A stretch of 64,000 nt of DNA from Apostichopus japonicus (lineage: Eukaryota > Echinodermata > Holothuroidea > Aspidochirotida > Stichopodidae). The stretch is taken from contig NC_092571.1 in the NCBI RefSeq assembly GCF_037975245.1, forward strand, positions 26,178,564-26,242,563, written 5' to 3'. Both the position numbers and the translations under genes were made by a program. The notes under the pieces were generated by a model that saw nothing but the letters and a program-made list of their open reading frames with translations, was not told where the DNA came from and searched no databases. Positions 31,901-54,026 of this stretch are shown here, in pieces. Each line of letters opens with the position of its first letter. Positions within the stretch are counted from its first letter, which is position 1.

Positions 31901-34900
31901 TCAACATTCTGTCTAAAATGTAGCAGCATAGTTGTATATGGATGGCTAATTTGTTGTTTTGTGTGCAGTGATCGTTGCTCCAGGAATGGAATGAATACAT
32001 ACAGCTGGACAAACATTCTTCTTAAGGCAACATGGTTTTAGAAAGTTTTCCAGTGTTTGTAATTTTGTTACATGAAAGCTAGCTACATTTCTCCGATTAT
32101 TAGAATAAAATGGTTACTAAATTGCTATATCACAACTACCTGGTATGGAGCAGAGAAAAAAAAAACTTTGGTCCATTAAAGCCTCATAGCAAGAGGTTTG
32201 TTTACTGTTCCATTGTAAACATTGCAGGTACAAAAAAGGAAAATTTCATGAACAAAAATAATAATGAAACAAAATGAAAATGAGATAAAAGAGAAATATG
32301 ATAAGGATAGAGATTAAACAATAACCACAAGATGTTAGAATGAAGCCATTATAAGAGTTTCACACGTACTGTACATTAGATAGTACTGATAAAAACTGGA
32401 AAGTCCTTCACTCTACAATAGCATTACAGAAATGTTGCTAGAAAGAACACTGGCAAGCTATCGACACTTATTGTCCAAGAGAAATTACAATTCCTACAAA
32501 TTTACCAGGTGAACAGAGTGTCCTGGTTTCTAACTTAAAGACAATAATTTTCACTGTCTCCTTCTTTCATGTGATGATCTCTCAGTAAAATATGATTTCT
32601 AACTCTTTTTTCTAAATCAATTTATCTGAATTAGAGACACATGGAGAAAGCCATTTCCTGTGAAATAATGTAAATTGTACCATTGTGTTCTGCAGCACTA
32701 GCACTAGCCCTAGCACAAGCAATTACGTGTAAACCCTACCGCCCCCTCCCCCCCCCAATAAAAAATAAGGAATCAATTCTGTGTCTATTGTATATATTGC
32801 TAGCTTTTCTTGTTTGATTTTGGATTCAACCTAATTCTCCCTATTATTCCAAAATCACCTGATTTTTGGATTGAAAATAATTAAAACCTCCATATTAAGG
32901 CAGCTTGGCTGGTCTAGGAACAAAAAAAAAACTTCTTTAAGAATTTCAAACATTACAACGTATGAAACCATGAGGTCAGATTATGAAGACCATCAGCTGG
33001 AATACCTAACCCTAAAAGGCATAATTATCCACAAATAGTGCTTTGTACAAGACATAAAAACATTTGCACCATTGGTAAACAGTTAGATGTTACCTAAAAT
33101 GAACACAGTTTATATTAAATACAGCAGGGACATGTTATTCATAATATTTTACAAAAGCAATAACTAAACATTAAAACCGATCAAAATATTCAAAAATTAA
33201 TTTCTTGTCATGATTTCATATCATGAAAAAGTTAAGAAAGTCAATAAAATCTTACAAGACATGATAAAAATAAAAAAATTGGGGAAATAAATGACTTTTG
33301 TTCAAACTATAGTAATAGTTTAGTTTTTACAATTTGATCATAAAAATGGGGCAGGATACTTATTTGTAAATTTGAAAAAATGGGGCAGTGATACTTATTT
33401 GAAAATGAAACGTTTCTTCTGTGGCATTTTTATTCTCAAATGAGTAAATTAACACAAAACATCACTGACCCACTATGATTTACAGGTATTTAAGACTGGA
33501 CTGACCTCAGCACCAGGCACCCTAAAATAACTGTACGATACTCAGTGTGAGGCCAGGACACCATGGGGAGATTCCTCATCCCAGTCTGTAGACTACTGTG
33601 CTCCAATCTATACCACCATTATGTGTACAAATACTTCATAAGTAATACTGTATAAGGCATTGTGACCCTGCTAGAATTGCTCGTGCACCCCTCTCCCCCC
33701 TTTAACTGTTGGTCCCCCCTCCAATTCAGAATTCCTGGCTCCAGGCCACAGGTTCCCACATATGTACAGTACCTTCAGCAGACAGTAGATATTATAATTT
33801 TAAAGTGACCCACGTGATAAAGCCAGCTTTAAGTCTGTAGTAAGCATTTATAGCTCAATGAAAAGGTTTCCCAGAGTGTTGTTCAGAATGAAACAAGAAT
33901 CGCATGGTTGAGGTAGTACTGATTTGTACATCGTGCACAGGCTGGCATGAAAGCACATGTTTGGACAGCTCCTACCTTTCTACTCTCTTCACTACTTCAG
34001 CGATTTCCCATCTACTTAATACTTTTTCTTCCACTTTAAATTAATTCTTGTTCCTATTCCACATCATCCTCGACAGTACAAAACAGGTTAATTTAAAATA
34101 CATAGCGACACTGCTGAAGAATTTTGTTCATTTTAAATATGAATAAAAGTGCATAAGATTACCATGTGTCCATTCTTTTGTTCCTTTCTTTTATTCTATT
34201 TTTTTGTTCTAGATACACGTTCCTAGATTTGTTTCATCAAATTTTGATAAAATCTGCCAATTATTAGTGACTTTGATTCATTACTCAACAGTTTAACTCC
34301 CAGACCAAGAAACTTGGATATTTTGAAACAGCATTTACTCTTTTACTAACATTCTTGAAATGACACTGTACTAGTCAAGCAAATGAACTATTTCCCATTG
34401 CTATTTTTTTTTAAAGGGAACTGGATATCCCAAGAGTATAATTTTTTTGGTAACATTAACAGCAAAGAAGATGTGTTAACATTAGATGCACAGTAAACTT
34501 CCATCAGCTGTTTGTCTATGTACAGTGTGATTAAACAAGTAAAATGGAAAAAAGTTTATGCTGATTGCATCTCAAGGTGGCAAGACTCACAAAACATAAA
34601 ATGCAAATTCCAATTAAGGGGCTCTCTTAACCTGTAAACAGCTATGGTTATTTACAAACTATTAGAACAACAAATATCAGGCTAAACTTTATTAGTGGGG
34701 TAGGGGTGGGGGAAGGCCAGATGTTCTTTTTTCTTCAGATGTGACAAATACATCAGATAATTATCAACTTAAATAGAAAGTAAGGAAAACAGTAAGGAAA
34801 ATAATCAGCTGTTGATGTTAAAACCCTGTGCAAACTGTGTAGGGACTTGAACATCTTTCTGGTTGCCTCTGCAAACTCTTCTCTGTCAATGTACAAATCA

Positions 34901-34914
34901 GCTACTTTCCTTGG
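28976..34914. other. Gene B 3' UTR and 3' flank, no further gene seen
   Basis: About 5.9 kb of AT-rich sequence. I see only CA, TA and C-tracts (29319, 31316-31400, 32742). No ORF with coding character on either strand. How far the gene B 3' UTR reaches is unknown. Confidence 0.5.
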
Positions 34915-34934
34915 CTACAAAGCAGTTTCTTCAT
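34915..34934 (-). CDS. Gene B exon 14: terminal coding exon
   Basis: Phase 1 in after TTTTACAG. Encodes DEETAL and then TAG. The rest of the exon is 3' UTR; an AATAAA on the minus strand (34693-34688) is one possible end. Confidence 0.7.
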
Positions 34935-37900
34935 CTGTAAAAGAAAAACATAATCACTTACTTGTTAAAAATCACCTGCTAGTTAATATAGATGTCCACC
35001 ATCATGAGATCAGTATGGAATACTGCCACTGTCAACAGCATAGGTCCATCCAGGTATTTAACATGGCTTTGAATTCTTATAGATGTTTGTCCTAAAGTCA
35101 CACAATTAAAGACATTCAGGGACCAGTGTTATCTTTCTTAAGTCATAATAAAATGCACTAAGGTTCCTTAACTGAGTCTTCTGCACCAGAGCTGCTCCTA
35201 AAATTTCATGACATTCATAGATCATATAACATTTTAATCATTTATTTTATTTATATTTTTACTAATTTTTGTTGGTTAAATTTCTGATGATCCTACAGTT
35301 AAGGTAGAGAAAACTCATAAGGTCTGATACTCTCAAACTTTGACATCTAACTTATTTACTGACATAAGTAGTGCAAAATTTTCAAAAATTTATCAAAATA
35401 ACAGCTGACAGTAATTTATACCCCGGGTCGATAGATGTTTCAATGAAGTCATTCCTAAAATTGGCTTTTGAAAACTTCAATACAATATGTTGCAATCTAA
35501 CTTTAAGTCTACCAACAGAATCAGCATCATATATCAAACAGTAATAAGTTACCTTCATTAGGACCATTCAAGGGCTCACGTTCTGAAAATAAAAGATCAA
35601 ATTCATTAAAAAACAACAAATGAAAATTATTCAATAAAAGGCAACATTCATATAGGAAAAAGACAGAACAACATGTTCAGCACAAACACACCTATCCAAA
35701 AACTACAACCGTTTCACAAATCTAAATAATAGCTGACAGTAATTTATACTCCAGGTTGATAGGTGTTTCAATGAAGTCATTCTTAGCATTAGCTTTTCGT
35801 CCCTTTCTTTGACAATATTAACTCACCTTGTGTCTATAAGAGTAAGAGACATAACTGAATCATTTCCAAGATAGATAACTTACCTTCATCTTCTGGGGAT
35901 GCATCTGCTGCATCGTTATCATCTGTGAGATAAGAAAATGCTGTAAGACTAAGACTTCTTACTCAAGAATGATGATTATGTGACAACTCATTGATTGTTC
36001 ATTGTAAACATGAAAACATCAATACAATATGTTGCAATCTAAACATAAGTCTACCAACAGAATCAACATCATATACCAAACAGTACTATAAATTACCTTC
36101 AGTAGGACCTGCATTCAAAAGCGGATGTTCTGAAAATAAAAGATCAAAAACATTTTACAAAAACAAATGAAAATTATTCAATACAAGGCAACATTCATAT
36201 AGGTAAAAGATCAGAACAACAGTTAAGCACAAACACACATATCCAAAAACTGAACTATTGTGCCATATGAGGTAATTCACCAAGTCTAAGTTAGAAAGAA
36301 AATTTTACTCTAATCTTTGCCTTGTGTTCAAGCCTGTAAAATCATACTATTGGTTCAGGTAAACAAACATTCAAATGTATCACTCTACTAGGAGTATTCA
36401 ACAAGATGATTGAAAAAGCAGAAGTAATGAAGATATGAGTTCATGACGTCACTGACAAGTTAGCTAATGTACTGTAATTCAATTCCTTAACATCGGTTTT
36501 TTGTCATTTCCTTTTTATGACAATATAAACTCACCTTCAGCATTGTCTCCATTTTGTGAACTTAGATTGTGCAAAAGAATTTGCTCATGTCCTGAAAAAA
36601 AAAAAAAAATTAATGTAACAATAAATGACACATTTCCCTTTAGAGCTGCTTTCATGTAAGTAAAAGAGTCAGAAATACACTCATAGATGGGAATCGTATC
36701 ACAAAATGTTATTTTGATCAAGCCTTAAATTCCAAATATACGGTACTGACATGCATTTGATCACATGCCTGTGCATTTGATCACATGCCTGTGCATGCAT
36801 GTGATCACATGCCTGTGCATTTGATCACATGCCTGTGCATTTGATCACATGCCTGTGCGTTATTCACTACAATTGAAGTTCTATAATGGTTGATGTTTTT
36901 CCATTTACAGATTTATCTGATGAAGAATTTGCTCTTGTAAATTCCAATTTTGACACAAATTTTAATAGCTGGATGGACCTGGAAAATTGTGACTTAAACT
37001 TGAAGACTTTTCAATATACAGATCATGATTCATTTGATTATGAAAATGACATTGATATAGATTACAATTGTTTCAATACAGTAAATATCAAATGTAGTTA
37101 CTTTACTGAAAATCATTTCAAAAATAAAAATAAGGCAAAGGGTGACCTCTCCATCATACACTTTAACTGCAGAAGTCTAAGTGCAAACTTTGCACACTTA
37201 CAGAGTTATTTAAACTTGGATTTGGATTATATTTTTGATGTTATTACTTTAAGTGAAACCTGGTTCAATACCTCCTCAAATATTGATCTTTACCATATTC
37301 CTGGATATGATATGTGCCATATTGATAGAAGTGATAAGAGAGGTGGTGGAGTTGCACTTTATATTCATAACAGCATCAAGTACAGTAAAGTTGACAAACT
37401 GTGTATTGCAATAAATGATGCCCTTGAGTGTATATCGGTTGAGCTTAAGTTTGAAAATAGAAGAAATATCATAGTTAGTTGTTTGTATAGACAGCAAGGT
37501 TCTTCTATTGATACCCTAACAGATACCATTGAACAATGTTTCAGATATAAAAGGTCTGACGTGTATTTATGTGGTGATCTCAATATTAACCTTCTTAATT
37601 ATCAGAATCAAGGAAGTACAAGGGATTTTTTGGATGCACTTTTTAGTTTGGGATTATTTCCCCTTATTGATAGACCCACTCGTATAACAAGGCACACCGC
37701 ATCACTGATTGATAATATTTTTTCTAATGTGTTACATAGTGATTTGGAGTGTGGCATACTTATTAATGATGTCAGTGATCATCTTGCAGTGTTTAGTATA
37801 AGTAAATCAAATATTAGTAGAAAGAAACTAAATGAATATATTTAAATTAGAAAGAAAGATGATGAATCTATGTCCATTTTTAAGCAAAAATTAAGTGAGG

Positions 37901-40900
37901 AAAATTGGGATTCAGTCTATACAGCCAAAGATGTACATGAATCATATAATTGCTTTGTAAGTAAAATAACTAAGTTACATGATAAGTGTTTTCCATTAAG
38001 AAAGGTGTTAGTTAGAAAGTGTAAAGAGGATAAGCCGTGGATTACTAAAGGGTTAAAGAACGCATGTAAAAAGAAAGAGATGTTGTACATTAGATTCTTA
38101 ATGTCATAAAATATTATTCCTGTGTACCAAACCTGCTTACATCTTTGCAGTTGTAGATCTAGGCATTTGACCAGTTTATAATATTTGTTAAATTATTCCC
38201 TGTACGGGGAGTCAGGTTGGTGCTACTATTTGGTGTGGCAGTTTTTGGGCTCTCCAGCTTATATTTGTAAAATATTATGATTCCTGTGTCCAAGATACTG
38301 TTAAACATCTTTGCACTTGTTCAGCAACTTGACCAGTTTGTATAATAGTTTGGGATTCGATACCCAGTTGAATTATTCCCTGGAGTAAGGCAGATATTGA
38401 AATTAATTTTGTAAATTGGTCTAACAATAATTCCTGCAATTTCCAGGCCATTAATGTTTCACATTGGCTATATATTGACTATCCCTTTCATAACTACATT
38501 TTGGCATACTGTTTCATATGCAAAGGTCACAAACTGTGACATATTAGCTTATTCAACACAGTGTCACTAGGGAATTGAGTAAGAGACATAACCGCCCATA
38601 GTGATTGAAGGTGAGTGAATTTTACTCCTCAGACATTCTTATTCACAGTTATCAATCCATAGATCAAAATTTAGGAAAGTTTCCTCTATTTCAGTTTCCA
38701 AGTAAAAAGTATTCTTATAATCTTGATACAAGAAGCTTTTCAATGTTAAACTAATAACTTAGACAATAATCTCCTTATTTGAAAAAGGAAAAAAGGTAAC
38801 TTACATATTAATGTCAATCAAATTTAATTCGGAAACTTCAGTATTTAATCAGTTCATTTTGTTTTACCTTTCAATCATAATAATATACACTAAGGTTCCT
38901 TAACTGAGTCTTCTGCACCAGAGCTGCTCCTAAAATTTCATGACATCCATAGATCATAACATCAACTTGAACATCTTCAGGCACCAAGATTAAATCCTGT
39001 GATCACATGAGGTCTGTACACACCATCAAATTTATAATATTTTAATTCTTTATCTATTGATTTTTGTTGCTAATTAATGTTTGTAACATTTCTGATGACC
39101 CTACAGTTAAGGTAGAGAAAACTCATAACGTCTGATACTCTCAAACTTTGACATCTAACCTATTTACTGACACAAGTAGTACAAACATTTCACAAATCTA
39201 AATGATAGCTGACAGCAATTTATACTCCAGGTTGATAGGTGTTTCAATGAAGTCATTCTTAAAATTGGCTTTTTTCGTCCCTTCCTTTCTTTGACAATAT
39301 TAACTCACCTTCAGCATTGCCTCTATTGTGTCTATAAGAGTAAGAGACATAACTGAATCATTTCCAAGATAGATAACTTACCTTCATCTTCTGGGGATGC
39401 ATCTGCTGCATTGCTATTATCTGTGAGATAAGAAAATGCTGTAAGACAAAGACTTCTTACTCAAGAAGGGTTCCTATAGCCATGATTCATAGGAATTGTC
39501 CTGTTTTTGAAATGCAAATATGTCGTAAACAGGTTATCTAAATTTTCTGAAGGTCTTGGAGACCTTAATAAATATCACCGTTTTATCGTATGGAATTGAA
39601 TTCTTATAGATGTTTGAACTCAAGTCACACACTTGCAGACATTTAGGGATCAATATTAGCTTCCTTTCAAAATGGTCAAATTGCTATACAAGTCTAATGA
39701 TGTAAGCAGCTTTCACAGAGAACCATAATAGTATTCCATAGAGATACAAAGTTCAGAGATTTCAAAACTGTTACACAAAATTTGAAAACTAATTTATTCC
39801 CTAATAAGATGCTACACAAGACAGATTTGAATGACCAATGTTCTTTGCACTGGCCAACAAACCCATCATCAACTTACTAGGTCGGCTCTGATCTGCTTGA
39901 TGGCAGTCACTGGGAACTACTGTATGGGGGAAAACCAGAAGAAACATCTAAATATTCATCACACAAATTGTTATTATTAGTCATACCACATAACTTGCAA
40001 CACAATTGGACCAACCTGGAGCTAGCCTCATATGAAAATAAGAAATTTGGGAAAGAGTTGTTACTGACATTTCAATTGCCATGATATATAGGATCATTTA
40101 ATTAGTTAATTCCTTCAAGTCTTGGAGGAATACTGGGTTTGAGCAGAATTGCATGAAATGCGTAAATAAAGGAAAACAAGTATTAAATGAAATCTTTAGG
40201 GTCTCACAAAAAGGTGAAACATAGCCAGTTAATGAATGATTCCTAATTGTCTGTCAGTATAAACAATATTAACAGTCATCCAAATAATTTAGACTAAAAT
40301 TACAGTGGCCATTGAGTGCCAGTTGGAAAATGATATATTTTTCAAGAAAAATAGTTTAATGAGCTCATACAAAGAAAACCCAGTACAGAAAAAGCAAAAC
40401 AATGTAAACAATGTGATGATAGTCTGGAAGGTTTGTATCTTTTGCTCCAAGTCATCCAAAGTCTAACTTACCATGACCATTACTTGAACTTTTTTCTTTG
40501 CTTGGAGAACAACAGCAACTGACTGGGAAAGGTTCTGCAAGAATAACATATAAAGCAGAACTCTGTCACTATTAGGATGGAATACTTACTGTTAATTTGA
40601 ACTCCACATGCAGTTCCCCAAGAAACTATAATAAGAATGACTTATTTACTTTTGAAATGTTCATAAATACAGGTATAACAGGTTTAACTGTTCACGTGAT
40701 GGCAGTTTAGAAGCGCAATGGAGCTATTATATTTGCCAAATTGTTTTGCTAAATACACTTTGTCATGGTGATAGCAATTACCATTTTCAATTAACAATCA
40801 GTAACTAATTGTTTTATACTGTTTTGCCTCTACCAATTTTTTGGGAATTTAGCACTTGTTGATGTCTCACAGATGTTTGTGAAGGTTGCAAACTGGGCTA

Positions 40901-43900
40901 CATATTGTACCTAAATGTTAAATGCTCTAATTTCTATTAGCACAGTATTGCCTGTCTGACACAGTACTACAACAGTTGGTAGTGTAGGCTTCATTTTAAA
41001 ACAACAGCATATAGGCATATAGGCTAAAGTGTATTTTGTTTATCACAATACGGTATATGGTTTTCAGATGCCAACATGCAGCTGTACAGTACTGCTCTAC
41101 TTACTTGCAAATATATAAATCCAAACATGCTGTACTTTTTTTGTTATAATTTTATGCCCATCTCCCTTGACCTTTGGATCACCATGGAAATGAAAGGGTT
41201 CTGGTGCTCAATGACTGATCCACATCAAAAGATATTTTGGAGTTTTCATGTGTTTATGCTTGTCAAGTAATATTGTGTCAATGTGATCTTCAGTACCACA
41301 GCAAACCATGGGGCTTTTATGCTCTGGCTGCATCCACAGACCAAATATGCATTTCAACCACCACATGGTTTTAAGTTATTATGTTTAAACGGTTACAATG
41401 TTTCCAGACTTTGACCTTGGCAGAAAACAGCAGGGTTTCAAGTTCAATGGAGCATCCACAAACCAAATAAGAAGCTTACCCCAACATCTATGATCTAGCT
41501 TTTGAGTTACTGTATCGTGTTAAGTAGCCTTAGTGACAACAAACACAGGCATGACACACAATTCTACAAGGAATCAATAAAAACTAAAAAGGTCTACGTA
41601 CAATGATAATCCCAAGCTTGTGCAGCATGAATATAGGTACTATGATAATCCCAAGCTTGTGCAGCATGCATATAGGTAATATGATAATCCCAAGCTTGTG
41701 TGGCATGTATATATGTACTATGATAATCCCAAACCTTGTGTGACATGTATAGGTAATATGATAATCCCAAGCTTGTGTGACATGTATAGGTAATATGATA
41801 ATCCCAAGCTTGTGTGGCATGCATACAGTATATGTTTAGCAATAGATTATTCACAGTGAACATTCAACCTCTGTAAAACTGACTCACTTATACATTGCAT
41901 ATACTGTATGAATCATACTTTATCTGTAAATTTGCTTCCATCAAATGTAAGGTCTTCCTCCATGAGAGCATGGAAAATTGCTATTCAATAAACGTGAAAT
42001 AAGAATGCTCTATTCTGTATATTTAATGAACAGACAAGTTCTGCTCCATACATAGTACAGTGCGAGTCTAAATAGTTGCTCCCTGTTGAAACAGTTAATT
42101 GACTTACCTTCTAAGTTCCAGCAGAAACATGATATTAATAGGCATATGCCCAGAATCATTATGAAAACAAGCAATATGGGGATAATCCATACAGAGATAT
42201 GGCCAAACTTCTCCCAGCCATGATCTATAGAAAAATAAAATACAGGATTTTTAAAGGTTGTAAAAATAAAAAATCTTTAAGGGCTCAAATTAATGGTTTG
42301 TACTTTGGGTGCCTTACTACTGCCCTTCATTCTGAATTTATCATATTAAAACACAACTGCAGCGATTAGTAATATTGTTCTTTCTGATATGTCTTTTTTT
42401 GGTGTCCATTTAAGTACCTCCTATGAGAGACAACAAAATATCTGCAAGTGCTAAAAGCTTTGGGCTCCCATCAGGGCTTCGATATACATTCCAGAAAAAT
42501 TGTATTTCACTCTCTCTCATCAGTTTTCTTTTTTCTTGTCCTTTAAACCAGCTAAGAAAAAAAAAAAGAAATTTCTATAACTGCTGCAGAATCCAAGAGC
42601 TTAATTTGCAAGAAATATTTCAAAAACACTGCAGCAGCCAGGGGCCATGCCTCATGGGCTATCAATAGGGCTTGAAATACATTCCAGAGAAGTATCATTC
42701 CTCTCGCTTTTCTGTATTTATTCCTTTTTCTGCAAATGCCACCTTCCAGGGACTTTACCGCACTCCTGTACTCCAACTTAATATGACTGTGTACCGTTGT
42801 GATGAAACAAATTGTCCCTTTTGTTGGTGTATATTTTATACAACATTGCATGGCTTATCACTGCAGTTCTTTCCAAAATTGATCTACACCCTGTTGAAGG
42901 TACTGGATGGTGACAGAATACGCCCCTGGGAACGCTCAAAATGATCTCGATCGACACACTTATCATGCTTTATATTGATTGTACGTCGGAACAAAATGTG
43001 CCTTTTCCTGCAATTTGCTGTACATTGTATTGCCCTCACCAAAATTCATTGATGCCCTAGGTATTAAATTTTGAAAATTGCCCAATTTGACCAATATGAC
43101 ACGGGCCAATATGTACAAATGCTGAAGATCTCCATTGCCATGGTGACGTGAGTCATCTCCATCATACAAATTGCTATGAGAAAGTGGTTTAATTATTTTC
43201 AACTAAGAAAGAAATCAAGTGGAATATTTTACTGTTTTCCAATTGAAATAATACAAATTACATTGATAGGCTTCTTTGCCAGGTAACGTATTTATATTCA
43301 AGGCCAACATGAATTGCTGCAGGTGCCCCTCCTTATATTGTTTGTGTCCCTTCGACTCAGTATTTTTTGGGTACTGAATAACATCCAATAAAACGGCACA
43401 ACTTGGAAATATTTCACTGGTTTACAGTTTGTGACGCAAGCTAGGCCCTAATTACTGACATTTTTTGTTTCTATAGTTACAACAAGGCATTTATATGCAC
43501 ACCTATATGCAGTTGCAATATATGCATACATTACAGCATCCTGGGTTCACAGGTGTCATCAAACTGCTGTTACCAAGGCAATTTTCACTGTTCATACCAG
43601 CATACATATAGTAACAATTCACACATTTGGCAAATGACATTGAAGGTGGATTTGGATACAGGGAAATCCTAACAGATTCCTTACAATTCAGCCAAGTTGA
43701 TGCAATTGGCATGCTAAACATGCTATCAATACAAACCAAGCAGATATTTGACTATATATAATAATGTGTGTACAAAGTGAAAAACCATAAAATGATTTTA
43801 CATATATGCAGCTGACCCACATTCCCATAGAGTGCATATGAATACATATAACTTGATTGATTGATTGTTTTTGATGATAATAATAATAATGGCCTTTGAA

Positions 43901-46900
43901 TATATCCAAAATAATATTAACTTGATCAGAGCGGCTAACTATCTGATCTGACAGATTCCACAGAGTCATATATTGTACCACATATTTTTACCATGGGTTA
44001 TATATTTGATTAACAGGTGTGAAAGTAATTTTCCTAACATATTATAACGAGACATGAAATTCCTTGATTCGTTAGAAATTGTTTCTTGAGCGAACATTGA
44101 GCATGCATGCATGTCGATAAAAGGAGAGTAACAACAATATCTAGGATTAATTACTCAAATCATCATGCTATTTAACAGTTTCTATGTACGACATGCCAAC
44201 GAGGATATTACACTTTACCTGTCTAGAGAAACAGAAATTACACCGCAACTTGTTCTTCAAGACAACATTAAAGGGCACACCCATAAACGAGAAGCAAACC
44301 ATCACTGTTACATGACACATCTGATGCTTAATAATCTGATGGAAACTTTTTGTTTTGTTCAGAACTATCAGAGTTTAAAAGACCTTGCTGCCATTTTGTA
44401 TGTCTACAACGGCACAATGGCATGGCATCAAGAACTGTCTTGCCACCATGCGCCCCCCTTCCCACCCCTTTAATTAATTTTATTTTTCTTTATTCCACAT
44501 TTTCTTGGACTCCCTCACTGTCCCTGAGTTTAAGGTCTACAATAGAATTTGAAATAAACATTAAAAAGAATTCAGAAGAAGAAACAATTATTGGAATTCA
44601 AGTATATAGTGTTTTCACTGTGTTTTAAAAACAGGTAAAACCAAGCCTTGTTCACATAATTCTCAAATGGAGTTCACGATTGCGGGGTTTGATGCAGGAA
44701 GCCAGTGTCCATACTACAGTCTTTTTAGGTGTTAAGGTTTTCTATTTTCTTTGATGGGAGTACTCTATTCGATTAAGCCCAAAAGGGTTTCTTGGTTTAC
44801 TTTCTTTCACATATTTTACTTATTTGCAGTTATTTTGTCTTGTTCACCTTGTATTACTACAGTCTTTACTGCCTTGGGTAGGTGGGGGGAGGGGGTTCAT
44901 TTCATTTTCACATGTGAACATGGCTCAAGATTTTAGTCTTGTGATTTAACGGAAATCAAAATTGTAAAAGATGTCCTTTACAATAGTTTGGCAACATTGC
45001 TCACAACTATCAGAGCTATCATGTAACAATGATGGTGATTTAAAGGGTGTGAAGACTCGCGCAAAAAGAAACGTCTCATGCCGGTAATCTGACCTAGTTT
45101 CGAATGAGGTGTAACAGAAGTGATAGACACCATTATCGATCTCAGAAAATAGGCACACAGCTTGCTACCTTCGGTAACTAGACACTAGTGTACATGCAGT
45201 CAATGCATACAGCTACGGTCAATACCCACAACACAGTGTAAATAGCAGCGATGGACATCTCAGGTGTTGATAAAAGATAACAAGGTATCACGTTTCATTA
45301 CTGTCTGCATTTTGTAGGGACAAGCAGAAAACTCCACTTGCAAGCAACGGAAAGTTAACTTTTTCAGAGCGCGGTACGTGGTTTGGGGCGAGTCTTCAAT
45401 GCCTTTAATTTGCTTTTCCTTTCCCATGCAGTACATATGATACAAACATACATGAATGATTACCGGTCCGTTAGTGGACTGTCCTAAATTGAGAGAAGCC
45501 ACTGACTGCTGATCGAAAGAAAAATGTGAAGATGATGGAGTACGTATTGGGCTAATAACATTTAATCTTTCTATTAAACTTTTAAAGCTGAAAAATTGAT
45601 TGCAATTCAATGGAGATCCAGAGAATGTTCCAAAACTGCCTTGCTTGCCTCGCTTCATGCTAATAAATCAAGCACCAACATTAATACATGTGTACAAGAG
45701 GAGACTTCAGGTTTTGCTGAAGATATTTATTAACATAAAAGTTGAAAATAAGTCTTAACTAATCATAAAAAGAACTTGGTTTGTTGGAAAAAAAGCCATG
45801 CTAATACTTACCAGTGTGACTCTCTTTATCTGCCGATTCCTCTTTTGGTGGAATGTCTGCTTTGGGAATACTTTTGGTTACTGGCAATGTTGTGCGGATT
45901 TCCTCTCCCTTCTTTGTGCTTGGGTTCTCATCTGTGTGGCAAGCAACTATCTATACTTACTGGACATATGTTATAATGTATAACTTAGTCAGTATAACAG
46001 TGGACTCATGTTCAAAACCCAACTGTTATAATGTACTGCTATAGTACCAAACATATTATGTTGCTGACTGAAGTTTTGCAGGATTAGTGGATAACATTCC
46101 ATCATCTAATTTTAATCTTCTTACATCCTCTGGGTAAACCTTCAAGGATATTTACTTACTTTAGTAAATGTTAGCAACTTTTTTTTAACATATAATTTGC
46201 TAACATTTCAGATTACTACTTAAAACTAATGAGAAAAATCCAATAGAGGAGCTGGTAATATTGTGATACGTACTATACAAATGAGAGAAATTTGCATAAA
46301 TTCCACTCCGAAGCAGGAATTGGTTAAGTCTGAATAACAGTTAGTGTAACCAAAGTCCTAAAGTAATATCAACAGGTATTTCTTCATATTATGTTTACAA
46401 ACTTTTCAATAGCTGGATTATCGCATTTGTTATACCTTAGGGCAATGGACCATAGATCTAATTTCACCACCTGAAGGCACTTCTTGTAAAGGACAAACTT
46501 GCTAATCTCCCACATATCCCTCCCCCCCCCCCCCCTCTCGTCCCTAATTCCCCGCATGAAATACTTTCAAACTGTTATGGAATTTGAATCTAATGGTTGA
46601 AAGTGGACCAGGGAAGGATTAAGTGAAACCTTTAGAAATACAATGTGCTGTCACATACTGTAACCCATTCACCTAATATTACAGGGATAATGAGCCTAAA
46701 TGAGGTTTATAATTTGCTTCACTATCTGTAAACAAGATTACACATGTGATTTCTATGTTAGTTGCCATAGAAACAGTTGCCAGGGTAACGGTTAAGTTTC
46801 CTGAGTAGCTCCTCTCAGGAATCACCATGGTGGGTTACCCCAGAGTGACTGGAAGTCCATGACGAAGAGAGGGGGTCAAAATCTGTTTGAGTGTGTACAC

Positions 46901-49900
46901 AAATGTGTGTGAGGGAAAGTGTGTCATTGTGTGCGTGTATCCAATGTTAATTGTGTCAAAAACTCATAACGGCTGGGCCCGGCGATTGTCTTCAAACTCA
47001 GTGGGAAGGTACCCTAGGGTAAATCCTTGTGTCTCAGATATCCCGGAACCAAAGGTCACAGTTCAGAGGTCACCATTTTGTGAAAATTGTGAATATTTTT
47101 GTGCTTTCATTATTTCCAAAGGAATCCTTTGGCTCTTATAATCCAAGGGAAACATTGAATTGACATGGAACCTTAACAGGTATCATGGAAATATCAAGTA
47201 CTATCAAAATATGTGGTTGCCATGAGAACCGAGGTCAAAGATCATAAGGTTAAAGGTCAAATGTACATTTAGCACAATTGTGTGTCCAAAACTCCTTGGC
47301 CGTGATGAGATATGCAACTCTATAGATTGCACTCTTGTTTTGATAGAACTCACATGTATCGTATGGACTGCCTACAGTTGATTCTGTTATATGGTTCCTA
47401 ATCTCTCTGCATTCTGGTGGTTTGGTTTTAGAGCATGGCGTTATTTCCTGTGTAAAAGATACAGTATGTCATGTATTACAAATTATTACAAAATTTATTC
47501 TTGGTAATTCACTGATATATATATATCGACAAATTGATAACTAGGGAAACTTTGAAACATGGTGATTTCGCCTTATTATTTATTCCTACTAATTAAACCA
47601 CAAAAGGCAAATAAGTAATAAAAATAATCAAAAAAATGTAACAGTGTTTCAACCATTTGTCTGATATAACTAGGCATGTTGCAACTGTTTCCCATGAAGG
47701 TGAATTGGCCTTCCCAAAATCAAGTTTCCTACAAGAGAGACAGGAAAACCCTGCAACTTAGACCCAGGTTCCTACACTAGACAACAACAACTTGTCCTTC
47801 ATTCTCCCAGATATATGTAGTAGCAAACTTAATATGTGACAATTGCCTATACAATATATAAGTACAGTACCTCGTAACCTTCCTCGCATTTCGGGCAGAT
47901 AATACAGGTAGGACACTGATTTGGGTGTGGCTGGTAGGTTCCTGTGCCATTCTGCAAATTTTGGCACTTTTTGCAATATCTGCCACTGTGAAAAAATATG
48001 GATTACTATTCAGTAAGATGTTATTGCACTGATAAATGTAGAAGACCTGCAAATTCATTATAAAAGGGTATCTTTACAAGACATATTTATGGAAACTTTG
48101 GCCCAAATCTAGACTATAAAGCAGGGTTGGCCGGTTTTTACCGCCCGGTAAAAACCAGGTGTTTACGGGGAGGTTTTTCCCACCTATAAGTGGGAAAAAC
48201 TGGGAAAAACCTCAAATTATATAGAATTCCTAAATATTCATGTGGAACTTGTGGAGGAGCATAGAAACTACAAGAAAATGGCATCTTATGGTAGAAGGTT
48301 GGGTTACATCCAAAAAAACAGCCATGATCTATAACTTTGTGAGTTTACCGATTAGACTATTATAAATAATTCAAATAAATAATATATATTGGATGCTCAA
48401 ATCAACCAACTTTATTTTCCTATCGAGATGCATAATTCCATAATCTAGAGAAGGGACAAGTATCAAACTGTTGGTGCCTCCTAGGTCTATGGTTCGTCAT
48501 ATTATACATGTCACATTGTCTTGTTACATATATAATGCAACACCATCACAAAAATATGGAAAGTGAGCAAACATATTCACAGTGTAACTTTTACAACTCG
48601 CTCGCCAAGTAGATCTCTCAAGTAACAATGAAAACTACATAGAGTGTACTCTGTTAAATTCTTGCAAACTACTTATGATATATGAACATGTTTTTGTGTC
48701 TTAAAATATAAATTACATGATACTAAAAAGGAAGTGCCCAGTATCACCTCACCTGTCCACCTCAAAGTGTTTAATCACTCATGCATGAAGTTGTATAATA
48801 ATTGGACCATGTTTGCATCAAGGTTAACAGTTGGGTTGTGTGAATGACTCGATAGGGCCATTGTGCGTTTAATACTTTAAATGGGCCCATGTGCCTTACA
48901 TAGTTTCAAAGCAGTTTCTATTGAGCCCCCTAGATTGAAGTTCACCTCAATAGACTTTTGCCTACTGTATTAATTGAAGAATTTAGGAGGGGTGAGTGTC
49001 CCAGTGTAGACCTAAAATGGTTTGGGCAATAGGCAATGCATACTGCTAAAGAGATCGTGACATAATAACTACATATGTGCAATATGAAAAATGCTCTTTT
49101 TCCCACAAAAAGGTTGTGATAAAATAGCTCAAAATGAAGCTAAGAAACTCCCATATTCAATAACATATGCCTGTCATGAAACAATATCGTGCCTACTGAT
49201 GACCCTGCATATTACGGACAAGTAATAATAGTTTTCGAGACGGAGGCGGTTTTTACCGGTATTTACCAGTTTTTCCCGGTTTTTACCAGGTTTTTACCGC
49301 TTAGTGGGAAAAACAGGTTTTTCCAGGGAAAGTGCCAACCCTGCTATACTGTAAAGGGAGGGGAGAAATGTTTAGAAACTATTAATGTCCAATTGATGAC
49401 TCTTGCATGTAAATTTATGAAGCCATTCTCAATGTGTATGGCATCAATATATTGTTAGCTGGACTTAAATAGATGATAATTAAACATTATTATCCAGGGA
49501 AAACTAAGCTGTAATATTTATTCCACATGATCACTTTTGAAATAGATATACTGTCTTACATATGAAACACAAATATGCACAATAGATTGGTCCAGACATA
49601 ACCACATGTTGTTTATATGCTGGTGGATATGCTGCACATTCAAAAAGAAAAAAAAACATATAATTTTGGCAGATACGGTTGATTTTCATGGACTAAAGCA
49701 AATTAACGCAGTTACAAATTCATGTTCTTCAAATTCTTATCTATTATGATCAGAGTTGGCAATTTTTTAAAATTTTATTAAAAAAAAAATTACAACAACA
49801 ACAACAACTTTTGAAGCAGTTATGAGTCTCTCGTTGACTACCAGGTATGGTATGAGTCTACAGGATGCATTACTGTATGTAATTTGGAGAAAGAAAAAAC

Positions 49901-52900
49901 ACTTCTGTTTAAATATGTAGCCAACCCACTTGATGTTCGAGAGTATACAACAAACTTTATTCTTGTTGAGTACTACTTTCACTATCTTGTTACAAAACAT
50001 AATATACAGTACTATTTACATAATAATCTATAGGATGTCTGCTTGACTGCCTGTTCACTATAAATTGAAATATATTGACCTCACTGTGATACACATGTGC
50101 GCACACGCCACATGGATGTATCTCATACAGTGTACATATAGGTACAGGATATTCCGCAGAAAAGTGAACCTGCATATATATAGGGTCTGGTCCACTCTCA
50201 GCTGAGAAACCGCAATGCAATTCATAAATCTGCTCAGTTTGTGTTCTTATTTAAAGCCTTGAACATGAAGAAAGAACATTAAACTGTAAAGTCTATATCT
50301 GCACAATTAATACACCTTCAAGCTTGCCTTTCAGTGTTTAAGTTTTAGTGGTAACATTGGTAATGCTTTTTTCTCTATGGTAGATCCACACACTAACTTC
50401 TGGGTCTTACAGTATTTAAACATTTCAGACTGACAAACACATTTTAAGCTTTACTATTTTCTTTTGATAACTTTAGTTGGAAACACCCTTGGAACCATTT
50501 ATTTACAAGTAACCTATATGACTAACAGATTTTAACTGATTAATGTTACAAGTTACATTCAACATTATGCTAAAAAAATATCAAACTACAGAAGCAGACT
50601 CTCAGTAGTTTCTTACAGTAGTAAAATCACAAACAAATTGAATAAAATGTTAAAAACATGAAAAAAAAATGTTTTGAATCAGTGATTTTTAATCAAAATC
50701 ACTCTTGCTTTAAATCGCGATTTAAAGCAAGTGATTTAAATCACCGAGATTTTAATCAGCCAACCCTGATTATGATCAAAAACACATTCCATGCAATTAC
50801 CAGATACTGCAGCTCTTCAGTGAATTAAACAGAACATGATTTTATGCTAAACATATCAAAATGTGTGAACTTACATGCCCCTCCCTGCCGCGTTGTACCA
50901 ATAACCCTCTCGACAGCCAACACCATCTTCATTTGTAACGTTAAAGCACGGCTCATTCTGCAAAATGAAACAGGCAATTTGGGTGAATCTATCATTATGG
51001 AGTGGAAATTTTGTATGTTAGAGCTGATGGTCGTAATCGATTAATTGCGAGTAGTCGCAATTACACGTTGGAAGTTTAATAAATCACGCTCAAAACCTAA
51101 GTTGCCATAACTGGACTACAAGCTAGCACTATAAACACAATCTGCTTTTGAAAAATAGCCTAACCTATCAAAAACAACACTAAAGCAGTTTGCCAGCAAC
51201 TATCGCAAACACAGGTTCTTACAATGCTATGTACACTAGAACTGCGCTAGATGTGAAAAATCGGCAAGCACCTGCTTCAGTTAGAGTCATGGGTTTGCCT
51301 TTCAGTAATACCAGGGAATTGTTTCCATAGCAACTTACTCCCTGGTATATATGCTAGTTGTGCAACTGGTGCAACATGTAGTCCTAGCAATTGATGTTTG
51401 ATCATTGCACATAAGAGCAAAGTTATTAATCTTTTACAATTGCCAAAGTATTTGTCATTTCTTCAAACATGATTGCAATCACTTCACTGGCCTGGTTCAC
51501 ATTTATCAGATGTCTGATCGAGTGTGTTGATTGCGGTGCAGTTTAATTTCAATGTGCAAAATATGTACCTGCTATCAGGCTAGGCTTGAGCCTATCCTGG
51601 AACGTTGAACCTATTCTTCTACACAAAACTCTTACATACTTTTCATAACACCGCTACAAGGAGTTACACTTTTTCATTGTTTGCACGTTTGCTTTTATTA
51701 GTGCTAGAAGTTGTAGTAACCTCGTAGATCCATTCAGAAGGTTTTGATAAACTATGAAGGATTTCAAGAAATGTTGTAGCTTTTAAGTTGTTCACAGTTT
51801 TTGTTTGGTAGATGTTTTAACATGATTTGGACACCACACATTAAGACATGAAAGAACAAATAAAGACAGTGCACCATGGAGAAAGATTTGTTTTGACTGT
51901 ATTTCTGCAATGTAAATATGACAGTGATGACGTCATAACTGTAACCGAGTAATCGCGAGAAGAGCAATGCGATTAATTGACTACAAAAGTAAGAGTCAAC
52001 TATCAGCACTAATACATGTGCTTGTTTCTTATCATGCACCAGCGTAGCGTGTTCTCAACCAAGGCATGTCCACTGTTTGAAAAAAGGGGCGACAAATCTA
52101 TTGGTCAGACAACTATGGAAATTAGACTTTGTTTATAAATATGAAAAATTAACAAGGTTTGGTCAGTACTTCTTCTAAGCTGTCCATCCCAGCAGGTGTT
52201 TTAATTTAATTCATTTATTTGTTTTATCGCCAATTGTGTACAAAGGGAAAGGAAGACTCCTAAAAAGTCATAAATGACTTAACAAGGTAGGAGACTCCCT
52301 GGGAGAAAAGAAAAGAAAAATGAACAAATATTTATAATACAGAATATACGTAATGATTAAGTATACAGAAATAATATCCTAGTGACGCTGAGATGGATAC
52401 GTGAAAAGATTAAATATTACTAGATTAAATATTACAGTTTTGCTGCTGAATGAGGCTCAGAGATCTGTCCTCTTAATCCACTGATTATGTTGTGTAATAT
52501 CAGGGTTAAATTTAAGTTTTAAAATGGCTCAAAATGGTTTATCGTAATCTTTACTCATTGGCACCTGGTGATGAGATTAGGTGCTCCCCTTGAAGGCATG
52601 GATGCCTCAGGTTTTCACCGGTTCGGTCTTGGATGAGATATGAGCTATAGTAACGGTTTCATCAAAGATGCATCTACTGTAGCTGACTGATTAGCAAGCC
52701 TATGGTTGACTGTGTTGTGTTACCTATTCTTAGCGAAACGAGAAGTTTGTTAGCATTGATGTTTCTTTTCCACAAGTGTTGGTGATTCTGCTGCATGAGC
52801 CACCGTCAGAATAATAAATCACTGGCAGAATTTACAGGAATTTTCCTCACTGGGACGTTCAGTCATCTTGTGTGTTCCTTACAAATTTGTCTGAGAACAA

Positions 52901-54026
52901 TTTGGAGAGTTAAGACCTCCGGGAAAGTACTTTTTGAAAACTTCTAAGCAATTATAGCATGCTATAATTTGGGCTTATACTGACTATACCTCTAATGTTA
53001 AGCTTATTTCACCTGTATTAAAATTTTGTAATGTTAGACAAGCTACCAAAATTGAAGCATGATTTATTGTTTTACTGTTTAAATTTCCCAAAGGTGATAG
53101 GCTAGGTTTTAATTTACTGTGTGGCGTGTGCAAAAGTTTGAGAAGGGAGCGTCGCACTCAATTGTTATTCCTATAAAGGGAACGTTCACATGGTGAATGA
53201 GGTACCATTGACTGCTACTGAGGTTTGATTAAAACTTATTGGTTAGTAATTTGGCATGAATGTGCCACATGTCAAAGTAAGTTGGAAAGAAAATCTAAAC
53301 ACCGAATGGCTTTTACGTTGAGTTTTGGCAACAATATTATTTTTGAGATGTTGAGTTTATGAGGGACATGTCCGTCTTGAGATCGTTCCACATTGACTGA
53401 CCTTTGAACTCCACAGATAAATCTGATTTCTCTCATTTTGTATTGAAGAAAAATTTTAGCCTACTGGACAGATCATTTGCATGTGACTATCCATACTGTA
53501 GCTCAGTATATTCTTGAGAATACTATTGAAATCCACTTTCATGAGTTTATCACCTGGCTACGTACAGTATGACTATGAGTACACAAATGTCTAGCATGAC
53601 GTATGGCCGACAATTGCACCTGAAGGTATCCTGTTTTACAAGAGTTTCCAACATTGACCTCTACTGTAGCTGTACCCACCTGATTCATAACCTCTAATTA
53701 TTTACTGCTGTACAGTACATTACAACTTATACTCTCCTACCACTGTTATTTTGATTTAAATGCAGAATTCTGGCCCTATTTTGTCAATGTTACATTTTCA
53801 ACAGGTAAAAGAAAATAACTTATGAAGGATGTAAATTATGTGCAAACTCCCAGGACTTATTTGTGAATAACGATCTTACCTCCTCTTCCTTCTCCACGTA
53901 CGGAATGTCGGTACTGGTCTGAGCTGGTCTTGTTGTTATCGGCATAGCATTACTTACTTCGTTGTTGAAAAAAATAATATGTGCCATAATGCAAGTAGTT
54001 AACGGCAACCAACAGGTACTCGTCAT
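34915..54026 (-). CDS. TNF-receptor-like membrane protein, gene B (14 coding exons, 332 aa)
   Basis: Joined exons: 54026-53880, 50957-50875, 47985-47871, 47447-47354, 45931-45812, 42224-42108, 40534-40472, 39919-39878, 39420-39382, 36591-36535, 36129-36097, 35922-35884, 35582-35553, 34934-34915. All junctions are GT-AG, phases match, and the 999-nt sum is in frame to TAG. Residues 1-27 are a weak signal peptide. Cysteines 53, 64, 81, 84, 101, 104, 107, 110, 120 and 128 form one TNFR-like cysteine-rich region, with sequons at N55 and N89. Residues 129-186 are a Pro/Thr/Lys stalk, 198-222 a membrane helix, 223-332 an acidic tail. Cysteines 219, 221 and 232-234 near the membrane could be palmitoylated, and residues 292-297 fit an acidic dileucine sorting signal. 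No death domain is seen, so signalling by adaptor recruitment is inferred; ligand unknown. A non-TNFR cysteine-rich receptor cannot be excluded. A possible poly(A) signal lies at 34693-34688. No 5' UTR exon was identified. Confidence 0.85.
35553..35582 (-). CDS. Gene B exon 13: 30-nt micro-exon
   Basis: Phase 1 to 1. Encodes EREPLNGPNE (317-326). Flanking intron matches that of exon 11, but the dileucine is now PLN, so the sorting signal is not conserved in this copy. Confidence 0.75.
35884..35922 (-). CDS. Gene B exon 12: acidic 39-nt micro-exon, copy 2
   Basis: Phase 1 to 1. Encodes DDNDAADASPEDE (304-316), the duplicate of exon 9, with consensus gtaagt donor and CTCACAG acceptor. Confidence 0.8.
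36097..36129 (-). CDS. Gene B exon 11: 33-nt micro-exon, acidic dileucine
   Basis: Phase 1 to 1. Encodes EHPLLNAGPTE (293-303); with the preceding Glu it fits the [DE]xxxL[LI] endosomal sorting pattern. Paralogous to exon 13. Confidence 0.75.
36535..36591 (-). CDS. Gene B exon 10: tail exon with leucine motif
   Basis: Phase 1 to 1, with an unusually pure polypyrimidine tract before CAG and donor GAAG|gtgagt. Encodes GHEQILLHNL and then a polar acidic end (residues 274-292). Confidence 0.8.
36752..36858 (+). repeat. 20-bp tandem repeat upstream of the LINE ORF
   Basis: About five units of tgcatttgatcacatgcctg (one of 24 bp) end 27 bases before the LINE start codon. They may be promoter monomers in the element's 5' UTR. 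Confidence 0.85.
36886..38109 (+). pseudogene. Non-LTR retrotransposon ORF2 fragment: AP-type endonuclease
   Basis: The frame from 36886 to 37845 encodes an APE-type endonuclease: HFNCRSL around residue 94, LSETW (E124), GGGVALYI (153-160), GDLNIN (230-235), IDNIFSN (275-281) and the catalytic SDH (297-299). One in-frame TAA (37843-37845) interrupts it. The same frame reopens to 38109 through the basic linker KPWITKGLKNACKKK, then ends; no reverse transcriptase follows. The style is that of CR1/Jockey-type LINEs. The fragment lies antisense inside a gene B intron, between exons 9 and 10. The missing 3' half is the reverse of usual 5' truncation and implies deletion or recombination after insertion. 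Confidence 0.85.
38106..38400. repeat. Imperfect direct repeat, about 160-bp period
   Basis: Two diverged copies start near 38106 and 38267, each containing attcctgtgt, catctttgca, gaccagttt and aattattccctg. They directly follow the LINE fragment and may be its decayed flank. Confidence 0.6.
38870..39480. repeat. Duplicated intron/exon block of gene B (copy 1)
   Basis: Contains exon 9 and flanks matching pieces of 35140-35960, including the segment from aaggttccttaactgagtct and the run ending at the ctgtgagataagaaaatgctg flank of exon 9/12. A 23-nt remnant of exon 10 lies at 39309-39331 but would break the frame. Confidence 0.8.
39382..39420 (-). CDS. Gene B exon 9: acidic 39-nt micro-exon, copy 1
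   Basis: Phase 1 to 1. Encodes NNSNAADASPEDE (residues 261-273). Nearly identical in sequence and flanking intron to exon 12 at 35922-35884, 3.5 kb away. Confidence 0.8.
39878..39919 (-). CDS. Gene B exon 8: 42-nt tail micro-exon
   Basis: Phase 1 to 1, acceptor CATACAG, donor CCTA|gtaagt. Encodes VVPSDCHQADQSRP, residues 247-260. Confidence 0.7.
40472..40534 (-). CDS. Gene B exon 7: cysteine-cluster juxtamembrane tail
   Basis: Phase 1 to 1. Encodes residues 226-246, with three adjacent cysteines (232-234) close to the membrane, then a Ser/Lys-rich stretch. Splice sites TTCTTGCAG and gtaagt are strong. Confidence 0.85.
41600..41825. repeat. About 38-bp tandem repeat, six copies
   Basis: Unit atgataatcccaagcttgtg plus gcagcatgaatataggtact, with length variants (36-39 bp). 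It lies in the intron between gene B exons 6 and 7 and creates repetitive open frames. Confidence 0.93.
42108..42224 (-). CDS. Gene B exon 6: transmembrane segment
   Basis: Phase 1 to phase 1, TTCTATAG acceptor and consensus gtaagt donor. Encodes residues 187-226, including a 25-residue hydrophobic run starting VWIIPILLVF and ending with cysteines 219 and 221. Confidence 0.9.
44946..45658 (-). other. Two minus-strand open frames of unknown origin
   Basis: Open frames at 45658-45260 (132 codons) and 45158-44946 (70 codons) lie in the gene B intron between exons 5 and 6, in the direction of the gene. The second has HETFLFARVFTPFKSPSLL and two close cysteines. I recognise no family; a decayed transposon gene or chance are both possible. 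Confidence 0.25.
45812..45931 (-). CDS. Gene B exon 5: extracellular stalk
   Basis: Phase 1 to phase 1, with a consensus gtaagt donor. Encodes a Lys/Glu/Pro/Thr-rich segment without cysteine (residues 147-187), typical of a juxtamembrane stalk and corresponding to the stalk exon of gene A at 7083-6952. Confidence 0.85.
46870..47335. repeat. Probable dispersed repeat in the gene B intron
   Basis: GC-richer stretch with ctcataacggctgggcccgg, ggtaaatccttgtgtctcag and several aaaggtca blocks, unlike its surroundings. No second copy exists in this window. Confidence 0.35.
47354..47447 (-). CDS. Gene B exon 4: end of cysteine-rich region
   Basis: Phase 0 in, phase 1 out (ACAT|gtgagt). Encodes residues 116-147 with C120 and C128 and then a polar start of the stalk. 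Confidence 0.85.
47871..47985 (-). CDS. Gene B exon 3: core TNFR-like cysteines
   Basis: Phase 2 in (TTTTCACAG acceptor), phase 0 out (GAG|gtactg). Encodes residues 77-115 with two C-x2-C pairs (81/84, 101/104) followed by C107 and C110, plus aromatic Y94 at the position usual in TNFR repeats. The strongest family evidence in the gene. Confidence 0.9.
48122..49343. mobile_element. hAT-type non-autonomous element, CAGGGTTGGC ends
   Basis: Ends CAGGGTTGGC and GCCAACCCTG are perfect inverted 10-mers, followed inward by ggtttttaccgg- and cggtaaaaacc-type blocks. Flanks ctataaag (48114-48121) and ctatactg (49344-49351) agree at 6 of 8. No coding sequence. Confidence 0.82.
49751..50768. mobile_element. 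hAT-type non-autonomous element, perfect target duplication
   Basis: Ends CAGAGTTGGC and GCCAACCCTG; attatgat flanks both sides exactly (49743-49750, 50769-50776). Near the right end is a hairpin built on ttgctttaaatcgcgattta and its complement. Confidence 0.85.
50875..50957 (-). CDS. Gene B exon 2: first half of the cysteine-rich region
   Basis: Entered at phase 0 after TTTTGCAG and left at phase 2 (GGCAT|gtaagt). Encodes residues 50-76 with C53 and C64 and the sequon NVT at 55. The C-x10-C spacing equals that of gene A exon 3 of the coding set. Confidence 0.88.
51307..51348. repeat. Short hairpin related to 20607
   Basis: ataccaggga against tccctggtat closes the stem; the inner part has ttgttt/gcaact. 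Lies in intron 1 of gene B. Confidence 0.75.
52838..52990. repeat. Dispersed repeat, copy 2 of 2
   Basis: Partner of 4135-4290; lies in intron 1 of gene B, whereas the other copy lies in gene A. Type unknown. Confidence 0.8.
53880..54026 (-). CDS. Gene B exon 1: signal peptide and N-terminal linker
   Basis: Encodes residues 1-49 and ends phase 0 at GAG|gtaaga. The chosen ATG directly follows a TTGCAG acceptor-like sequence; an in-frame ATG ten codons upstream (54056) would give a longer leader. The segment after the leader is Thr/Pro-rich and ends in acidic residues (EKEEE). Confidence 0.75.

What the first reader, a model, noticed from the sequence alone, without database searches (positions are those of the whole stretch)
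34915..54026. Complete TNFR-like receptor gene built of 14 small exons
Fourteen exons with consensus splice sites and matching phases give a 999-nt frame ending in a stop, with leader, ten-cysteine TNFR-like region, stalk, one membrane helix and a death-domain-less tail. Most exons are too short for ORF-based gene finding, so the gene would be easily missed.
Basis: partly seen in the sequence, partly recalled or inferred. Interest (0 to 1): 0.75.

Follow-up and report, generated by a model that had tools for sequence, protein, structure and literature searches.

The report
TNFR-like receptor gene, micro-exon tail
This stretch of what is most likely sea cucumber DNA holds a real-looking gene, split into 13 or 14 small exons, for a cell-surface receptor resembling the TNF-receptor family but with no death domain found; the family is known, and the odd part is a tail made of tiny duplicated exons.

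Summary
It scores 31.4, against at most 15.8 in 40 shuffles. A strict splice-site scan of 21 kb finds 9 internal exons; 8 belong to the chain, and the ninth is a relic copy of the end of exon 10. Exon 8 is no stronger than chance and the frame is open without it (957 nt). Exon 1 is only moderately supported.

TNFR membership is likely but marginal. Pfam TNFR_c6 appears only when exons 3 and 4 are joined (24.6 bits, E=3.3e-5), and no version reaches the curated 29.4 bits. No death domain was found. By assembly statistics the genome is probably Apostichopus japonicus.

Most distinctive is the tail: phase-1 micro-exons of 30-63 nt, two pairs being local duplicates that diverge at least as fast as their introns. 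Exon 6, carrying the membrane helix, is also a phase-1 cassette. New member of a known kind; no transcripts or relatives were available to confirm splicing.

The parts
53880..54026 (-). Exon 1 (147 nt): ATG, weak signal-peptide-like leader, linker; moderately supported; a 3' splice-like 'gttgcag' stands directly before the ATG, so a 5' UTR exon may precede it
50875..50957 (-). Exon 2 (83 nt): Cys 53 and 64, start of cysteine-rich region
   Evidence: strong sites
47871..47985 (-). Exon 3 (115 nt): Cys 81, 84, 101, 104, 107, 110; first half of the TNFR_c6 match; donor weak (gtactg)
47354..47447 (-). Exon 4 (94 nt): Cys 120 and 128; second half of the TNFR_c6 match
45812..45931 (-). Exon 5 (120 nt, phase 1-1): extracellular stalk
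42108..42224 (-). Exon 6 (117 nt, phase 1-1): single transmembrane helix; skipping would leave an in-frame soluble protein
40472..40534 (-). Exon 7 (63 nt, phase 1-1): juxtamembrane tail with CCC
39878..39919 (-). Putative exon 8 (42 nt, phase 1-1): not distinguishable from chance; optional
39382..39420 (-). Exon 9 (39 nt, phase 1-1): cassette type A, duplicate of exon 12; a further in-frame acceptor lies at 39438
39309..39331 (-). Relic copy of the 3' end of exon 10, 23 nt, with good splice sites; inclusion would shift frame and stop in exon 10
36535..36591 (-). Exon 10 (57 nt, phase 1-1)
36097..36129 (-). Exon 11 (33 nt, phase 1-1): cassette type B, duplicate of exon 13
35884..35922 (-). Exon 12 (39 nt, phase 1-1): cassette type A
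35553..35582 (-). Exon 13 (30 nt, phase 1-1): cassette type B
34915..34934 (-). Exon 14, coding part (20 nt) ending ...DEETAL-stop
34688..34693 (-). AATAAA 221 nt after the stop, followed by a T/G-rich stretch: likely polyadenylation signal

Best explanation
The locus is a functional-looking gene, with no second copy found, for a membrane receptor of the TNF-receptor kind. Shown by sequence: an open multi-exon frame, a ten-cysteine ectodomain holding one recognisable TNFR repeat, one membrane helix, and an acidic tail of about 95-110 residues with no recognisable domain. Inferred: a leader takes it to the cell surface; a TNF-type or other trimeric ligand clusters it through the cysteine-rich region; with no death domain, it signals (if it signals) by short tail motifs that recruit TRAF-type adaptors, not by direct death-domain assembly. 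One PxExxE sequence at the C-terminus fits the TRAF6 consensus, but that is not more than chance. The tail is assembled from symmetric phase-1 micro-exons, two of which arose by local duplication, so exons can be gained, lost or skipped without breaking the frame. Skipping exon 6 would remove only the membrane helix and yield a soluble form.
For: Exon chain far beyond chance. TNFR_c6 match created by the exon 3/4 splice; cysteine-fixed shuffles give at most 8.1 bits in 10 trials. Nearest solved-structure sequence is death receptor 5, TNFRSF10B, E=0.005, with aligned cysteines. Strong hydrophobic helix. AATAAA after the stop. No premature stop, and a genome search with exons 2-7 finds only this locus. 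The same genome holds one TNF-ligand match and ten TRAF MATH-domain matches, some of them pieces of one gene; TRAF3 and TRAF6 transcripts are reported from A. japonicus coelomocytes (PMC4264123, passages). No Death-domain match on the spliced protein; the nearest listed one on the same contig is about 2 Mb away.
Against: No Pfam score passes the curated cut-off (21.1-29.1 against 29.4 bits). A profile from 9 hand-cut TNFR repeats of the same genome gives only 6.9 bits, reached by 8 of 2000 free shuffles and 103 of 2000 cysteine-fixed shuffles, the best of which scored 25.1. The ectodomain has a CxxCxxCxxC run, one cysteine more than the usual repeat. The duplicated tail exons show no purifying selection: 8 nonsynonymous to 1 synonymous change, pN 0.146, pS 0.07. 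The TRAF6-like motif occurs in 34% of shuffled tails. No transcript, relative or structure was available.
Confidence: 0.78

Rival explanations
1. A real membrane-protein gene whose cysteine-rich ectodomain only resembles TNFR repeats: a lineage-specific disulfide-rich domain, not a TNFR-superfamily member.
For: Pfam below cut-off; weak match to same-genome TNFR repeats; extra cysteine; PDB E-value only 0.005.
Against: TNFR_c6 is the only credible Pfam match and covers positions 3-39 of 39; it falls to 8.1 bits in 1 and is absent in 9 of 10 cysteine-fixed shuffles.
Confidence: 0.15
2. Exons 2-7 are a real receptor gene but the micro-exon tail (8-14) is largely wrong: the transcript ends differently, and the small exons are unused or rarely used. 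(Partly compatible with the best explanation.)
For: Duplicated tail exons diverge at least as fast as flanking introns: 9 of 69 against 20 of 338 sites, Fisher p=0.067. Eight of nine changes alter the protein. Exon 8 is at chance level.
Against: Exons 9-13 all pass the strict splice-site scan with shared phase 1; 6 strong phase-1 exons against 0.07 expected. The exon 11/13 pair differs by a 3-nt, in-frame indel. The chain ends in a stop with AATAAA 221 nt on.
Confidence: 0.15
3. Chance: a chain of pseudo-exons picked out by eye.
For: Small exons are individually cheap; the looser threshold gives 0.7-0.8 false exons per phase in 7 kb of shuffled sequence.
Against: The whole chain scores about twice the best of 40 shuffles, and a profile match appears only on splicing.
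Confidence: 0.02

Closest known systems
TNF-receptor superfamily without death domain (echinoderm members; S. purpuratus is listed with 13 TNFRs, 3 with a death domain, PMC4979521, passages; an older count of 7 in PMC6394757, passages)
   Same: Membrane-receptor layout, cysteine-rich ectodomain with a TNFR_c6 match, single helix, short tail, no death domain found
   Different: Sub-threshold profile score, CxxCxxCxxC run, tail built of duplicated micro-exons; orthology to a named member could not be tested
Death receptor 5 (TNFRSF10B), best sequence match among solved structures
   Same: Cysteine spacing and residues around the second repeat
   Different: E=0.005 only; DR5 has a death domain (recalled), none was found here
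Human FAS exon 6 cassette (PMC11752881, passages)
   Same: One exon encodes the membrane helix and can be skipped to give a soluble receptor; exon 6 here is likewise a frame-neutral cassette
   Different: Skipping is only predicted here; FAS has a death domain (recalled)
The probable death-domain TNFR at G000:C23:16811000-16814500 (locus L011) in the same genome
   Same: TNFR repeats in the same genome
   Different: Its repeats lie in one open frame, and a Death-domain match lies about 3 kb downstream on the same strand

Membership tests
TNF-receptor superfamily | At least one extracellular repeat with the TNFR_c6 profile | tested here: inconclusive
   E=4e-4 to 1.3e-6 but 21.1-29.1 bits, under the 29.4 cut-off; best of 10 cysteine-fixed shuffles 8.1 bits
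TNF-receptor superfamily | Six cysteines per repeat with C1-C2, C3-C5, C4-C6 disulfides (PMC4979521) | tested here: inconclusive
   C104, C107, C110, C120, C128 have the usual C2-C6 spacing; C1 is displaced (C84 or C81) and C101 is extra; disulfides not testable
TNF-receptor superfamily | Type I membrane topology: leader, ectodomain, one helix, cytoplasmic tail | tested here: inconclusive
   Hydropathy only: one clear helix about 196-223; leader weak; orientation inferred from the family match, not tested
TNF-receptor superfamily | Close kinship to other TNFRs of the genome | tested here: not met
   tblastn with exons 2-7 finds only itself; profile of 9 repeats from 5 same-genome loci gives 6.9 bits, E=1.4. 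Not a strictly defining feature, as members have very low sequence similarity (PMC4979521)
Death-receptor subgroup | Cytoplasmic death domain | tested here: not met
   No Death match on the spliced protein at E<=10; nearest listed genomic match on this contig about 2 Mb away, with 150 of 204 candidates scored
TRAF-recruiting TNFRs | TRAF motif in the tail (Px(Q/E)E, Px(Q/E)xxD, PxExxZ; PMC6125299, passages) | tested here: inconclusive
   PNEDEE fits PxExxZ but 34% of shuffled tails have such a motif; no Px(Q/E)E in the all-exon form
TNF-receptor superfamily | Binds a TNF-superfamily ligand | not testable with these tools
   One TNF-domain match found in the genome, pairing unknown

The most novel reading that the evidence does not exclude
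The receptor's cytoplasmic tail is an evolving splice-cassette array: symmetric phase-1 micro-exons, made by local duplication and diverging at least as fast as their introns, are chosen by alternative splicing to write different adaptor-binding codes. An example is a second TRAF-like motif, PTEERE/PTEE, that appears when exon 11 is joined to exon 13 with exon 12 skipped (8 of 64 combinations). Skipping of the membrane exon makes a soluble decoy and a frame-shifting relic exon makes a short-tailed form, all from one gene in an animal without adaptive immunity.
Probability: 0.12. Interest if true: 0.6.

Novelty: new member of a known kind. Interest (0 to 1): 0.36.

Why it matters
What invertebrate TNFRs without a death domain do, and what ligands invertebrate TNFRs bind, are listed as open questions (PMC4979521, passages). 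A defined gene model in what is probably a farmed sea cucumber makes one such receptor testable. The micro-exon tail offers a concrete case for asking whether such receptors vary their signalling tail by exon duplication and skipping. The single gene is an expected kind of find, so the gain is modest.

Tried and rejected
Chance chain of pseudo-exons: rejected by shuffles and by the profile match that appears only on splicing. Shuffles keep dinucleotides but not local pyrimidine runs, so they may understate chance sites; the opposite strand, which also had none, is the second control.

Tail repeat as a dispersed repeat: not supported. A 1.1-kb tail segment matched only itself and its partial copy 3-4 kb away; that search skips very common words.

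Paralogous receptor: none found with exons 2-7. Death domain further along: none found near, though only 150 of 204 candidates were scored.

TRAF motif as evidence of function: rejected as not beyond chance. Same-genome repeat profile as a membership test: weak result, kept as evidence against. Rfam scan of the window at gathering scores: no match. Pfam on ten of the 13 ORFs of 100 aa or more: one clear match, the retroelement endonuclease.

Literature: searches on sea cucumber TNFRs listed no title on this gene; two A. japonicus papers searched by term mention TRAFs, and no TNFR hit was returned. PMC6394757 includes an A. japonicus TNFR16 in a tree (passages); whether any known entry is this gene is untested. 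The Holothuria glaberrima genome preprint (PMC13228809) has no match for TNF, TRAF or death domain (term search). This does not show that the gene is unpublished or unannotated.

Full report
Where it is. The window is G000:C11:26178564-26242563 of a 671,581,487-base, 35-contig genome. Its mitochondrial COX1 gives the expected conserved residues under the echinoderm code: AAA reads as Asn, ATA as Ile, TGA as Trp (the expected residues are recalled). The published Apostichopus japonicus assembly has 671.60 Mb, 34 scaffolds and a smallest chromosome of 18.21 Mb (PMC10344927, passages); contig C23 here is 18.20 Mb. The totals differ slightly (671.64 Mb published for the scaffolds), so the species is probable, not proven.

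The observation. The finding gave start, end, exon number and length, not the junctions. I picked 13 exons on the minus strand by reading the sequence; they gave 957 nt. A 42-nt phase-1 exon at 39919-39878, the better of two candidates, brings the total to 999 nt. Every intron is GT-AG. Exon start phases are 0, 0, 2, 0 for exons 1-4 and 1 for exons 5 to 14. The protein is 332 aa, or 318 without exon 8.

Is it more than chance? Three tests. (1) Counting open, phase-1, multiple-of-3 exons with strong sites in 34950-42100 gives 6 on the minus strand and 0 on the plus strand, against a mean of 0.07 and maximum of 1 in 60 dinucleotide shuffles. The six are exons 7 and 9-13; two pairs are duplicates, so about four are independent. 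Three are also open in phase 0 and none in phase 2. (2) A dynamic-programming chain search over 34700-54300 gives this chain 31.4; the best of 40 shuffles is 15.8 and the best plus-strand chain 4.8. The free optimum on the minus strand is a longer 22-exon chain (41.2) that keeps 12 of the 14 exons (not 1 and 3). Its ten extra exons come from a scoring rule that rewards every well-sited exon, and one carries a stop across a split codon that the script did not check. (3) With strict sites in 34700-56000 there are 9 internal candidate exons; 8 are in the chain (2, 4, 6, 9-13) and the ninth, 39331-39309, is a copy of the end of exon 10. Exons 3, 5, 7 and 8 miss these thresholds; exons 1 and 14 are not internal and were not scanned. 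The thresholds were set after I had seen the chain's own site scores, and the scores are simple consensus counts, not trained on this species. Exon 8 is not distinguishable from chance: its threshold admits it and one exon inside a retroelement fragment, with 0.8 expected. Exon 1 is the only ATG exon with a hydrophobic start found in 13 kb, but 10 of 60 shuffles have one too.

What it encodes. Residues 50-147 hold ten cysteines. Pfam reports TNFR_c6 over residues 91-128 (profile 3-39 of 39): 21.1 bits, E=4e-4 for the whole protein; 29.1 bits, E=1.3e-6 for an 82-residue ectodomain that I cut out; 25.5 bits for a 97-residue cut; cut-off 29.4. Exon 3 alone and exon 4 alone give no TNFR match; joined at the proposed junction they give 24.6 bits, E=3.3e-5. 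That is independent support for this splice. Exon 2 with the start of exon 3 gives no TNFR match. Of ten shuffles that keep the cysteines in place, one gives TNFR_c6 at 8.1 bits and nine give none. Against this, a profile of nine hand-cut repeats from five other TNFR loci of the genome gives only 6.9 bits, matched by 103 of 2000 cysteine-fixed and 8 of 2000 free shuffles, and tblastn with exons 2-7 finds no paralogue. The nearest solved-structure sequences are nine death receptor 5 sequences, E=0.005-0.011. The helix near 196-223 is strong (mean hydropathy up to 3.1). The tail has no credible Pfam domain.

The tail. Exons 9 and 12 (39 nt each) and exons 11 and 13 (33 and 30 nt) are duplicate pairs with their introns; a search of the genome with the 1.1-kb segment holding exons 11-13 found only this locus. 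Within the exons 9 of 69 aligned sites differ, and in the flanking introns examined 20 of 338 (Fisher p=0.067). Of the nine exon changes, eight alter the protein and one does not (pN 0.146, pS 0.07). The exon 11/13 pair also differs by a 3-nt, frame-keeping gap. The splice sites of all four exons are intact. So the frame and splice sites are kept while the peptide is free to change, or is pushed to; numbers are too small to choose. The relic of exon 10 would, if used, shift the frame into a stop in exon 10.

How it most likely works. Shown: the gene model, the layout, one TNF-ligand match and ten TRAF MATH-domain matches (some in pieces) elsewhere in the genome, and a TNFR locus with a Death-domain match about 3 kb away for contrast. 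TRAF3 and TRAF6 transcripts are reported from A. japonicus coelomocytes (PMC4264123, passages). Inferred: surface receptor, ligand-driven clustering, adaptor recruitment without a death domain. The C-terminal PNEDEE fits the TRAF6 consensus PxExxZ (PMC6125299, passages), but 34% of shuffled tails do as well, so it is a lead only. The ending ETAL also resembles a class I PDZ ligand (recalled, not tested). Exon 6 is a phase-1 cassette holding the helix; skipping it leaves the frame open, as FAS exon 6 skipping makes soluble FAS (PMC11752881, passages).

Known or new. Echinoderm TNFRs without a death domain are already counted in the literature: 13 TNFRs, 3 with a death domain in the purple sea urchin (PMC4979521, passages); an older count of 7, also with 3 death-domain members, is cited in PMC6394757 (passages). 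This gene is a new member of that kind if the marginal profile match is right. The duplicated micro-exon tail is the only feature I did not meet in the passages read; I ran no literature search aimed at it.

Noticed in passing
36886-37845 (+), continuing by eye to about 38110: Fragment of a non-LTR retroelement with an uninterrupted Exo_endo_phos ORF (Pfam 46.5 bits; class recalled), in the intron between exons 9 and 10, opposite strand to the gene.
   Followed up: partly
49751-50768: Element with CAGAGTTGGC / GCCAACCCTG ends and an exact 8-bp flanking repeat ATTATGAT, hAT-like in appearance (class recalled), in the intron between exons 2 and 3.
   Followed up: partly
48122-49343: Second element with CAGGGTTGGC / GCCAACCCTG ends and an imperfect 8-bp flanking repeat (CTATAAAG / CTATACTG), in the same intron.
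   Followed up: partly
2786-3913: Large 22-nt tandem repeat, about 50 copies, 88% matches.
   Followed up: no
26696-26993 and 28561-28889: Tandem arrays with periods 81, 34 and 104 nt that share GGAAAAGCC-like motifs, in both orientations.
   Followed up: no
27550-27624 and 28026-28100: Two 19-nt-period arrays 476 nt apart with the same consensus, copy number and score.
   Followed up: no
41603-41825: 39-nt tandem repeat, 5.8 copies, in the intron between exons 6 and 7.
   Followed up: no
G000:C12, about 19.4-34.2 Mb: A large share of the 150 listed Death-domain matches lies on this part of one contig: probably a local expansion of death-fold genes.
   Followed up: no
G000:C29:14745-31219: COX1-like pieces on a second contig besides the mitochondrial contig C35: unplaced mitochondrial or nuclear mitochondrial copies.
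   Followed up: no
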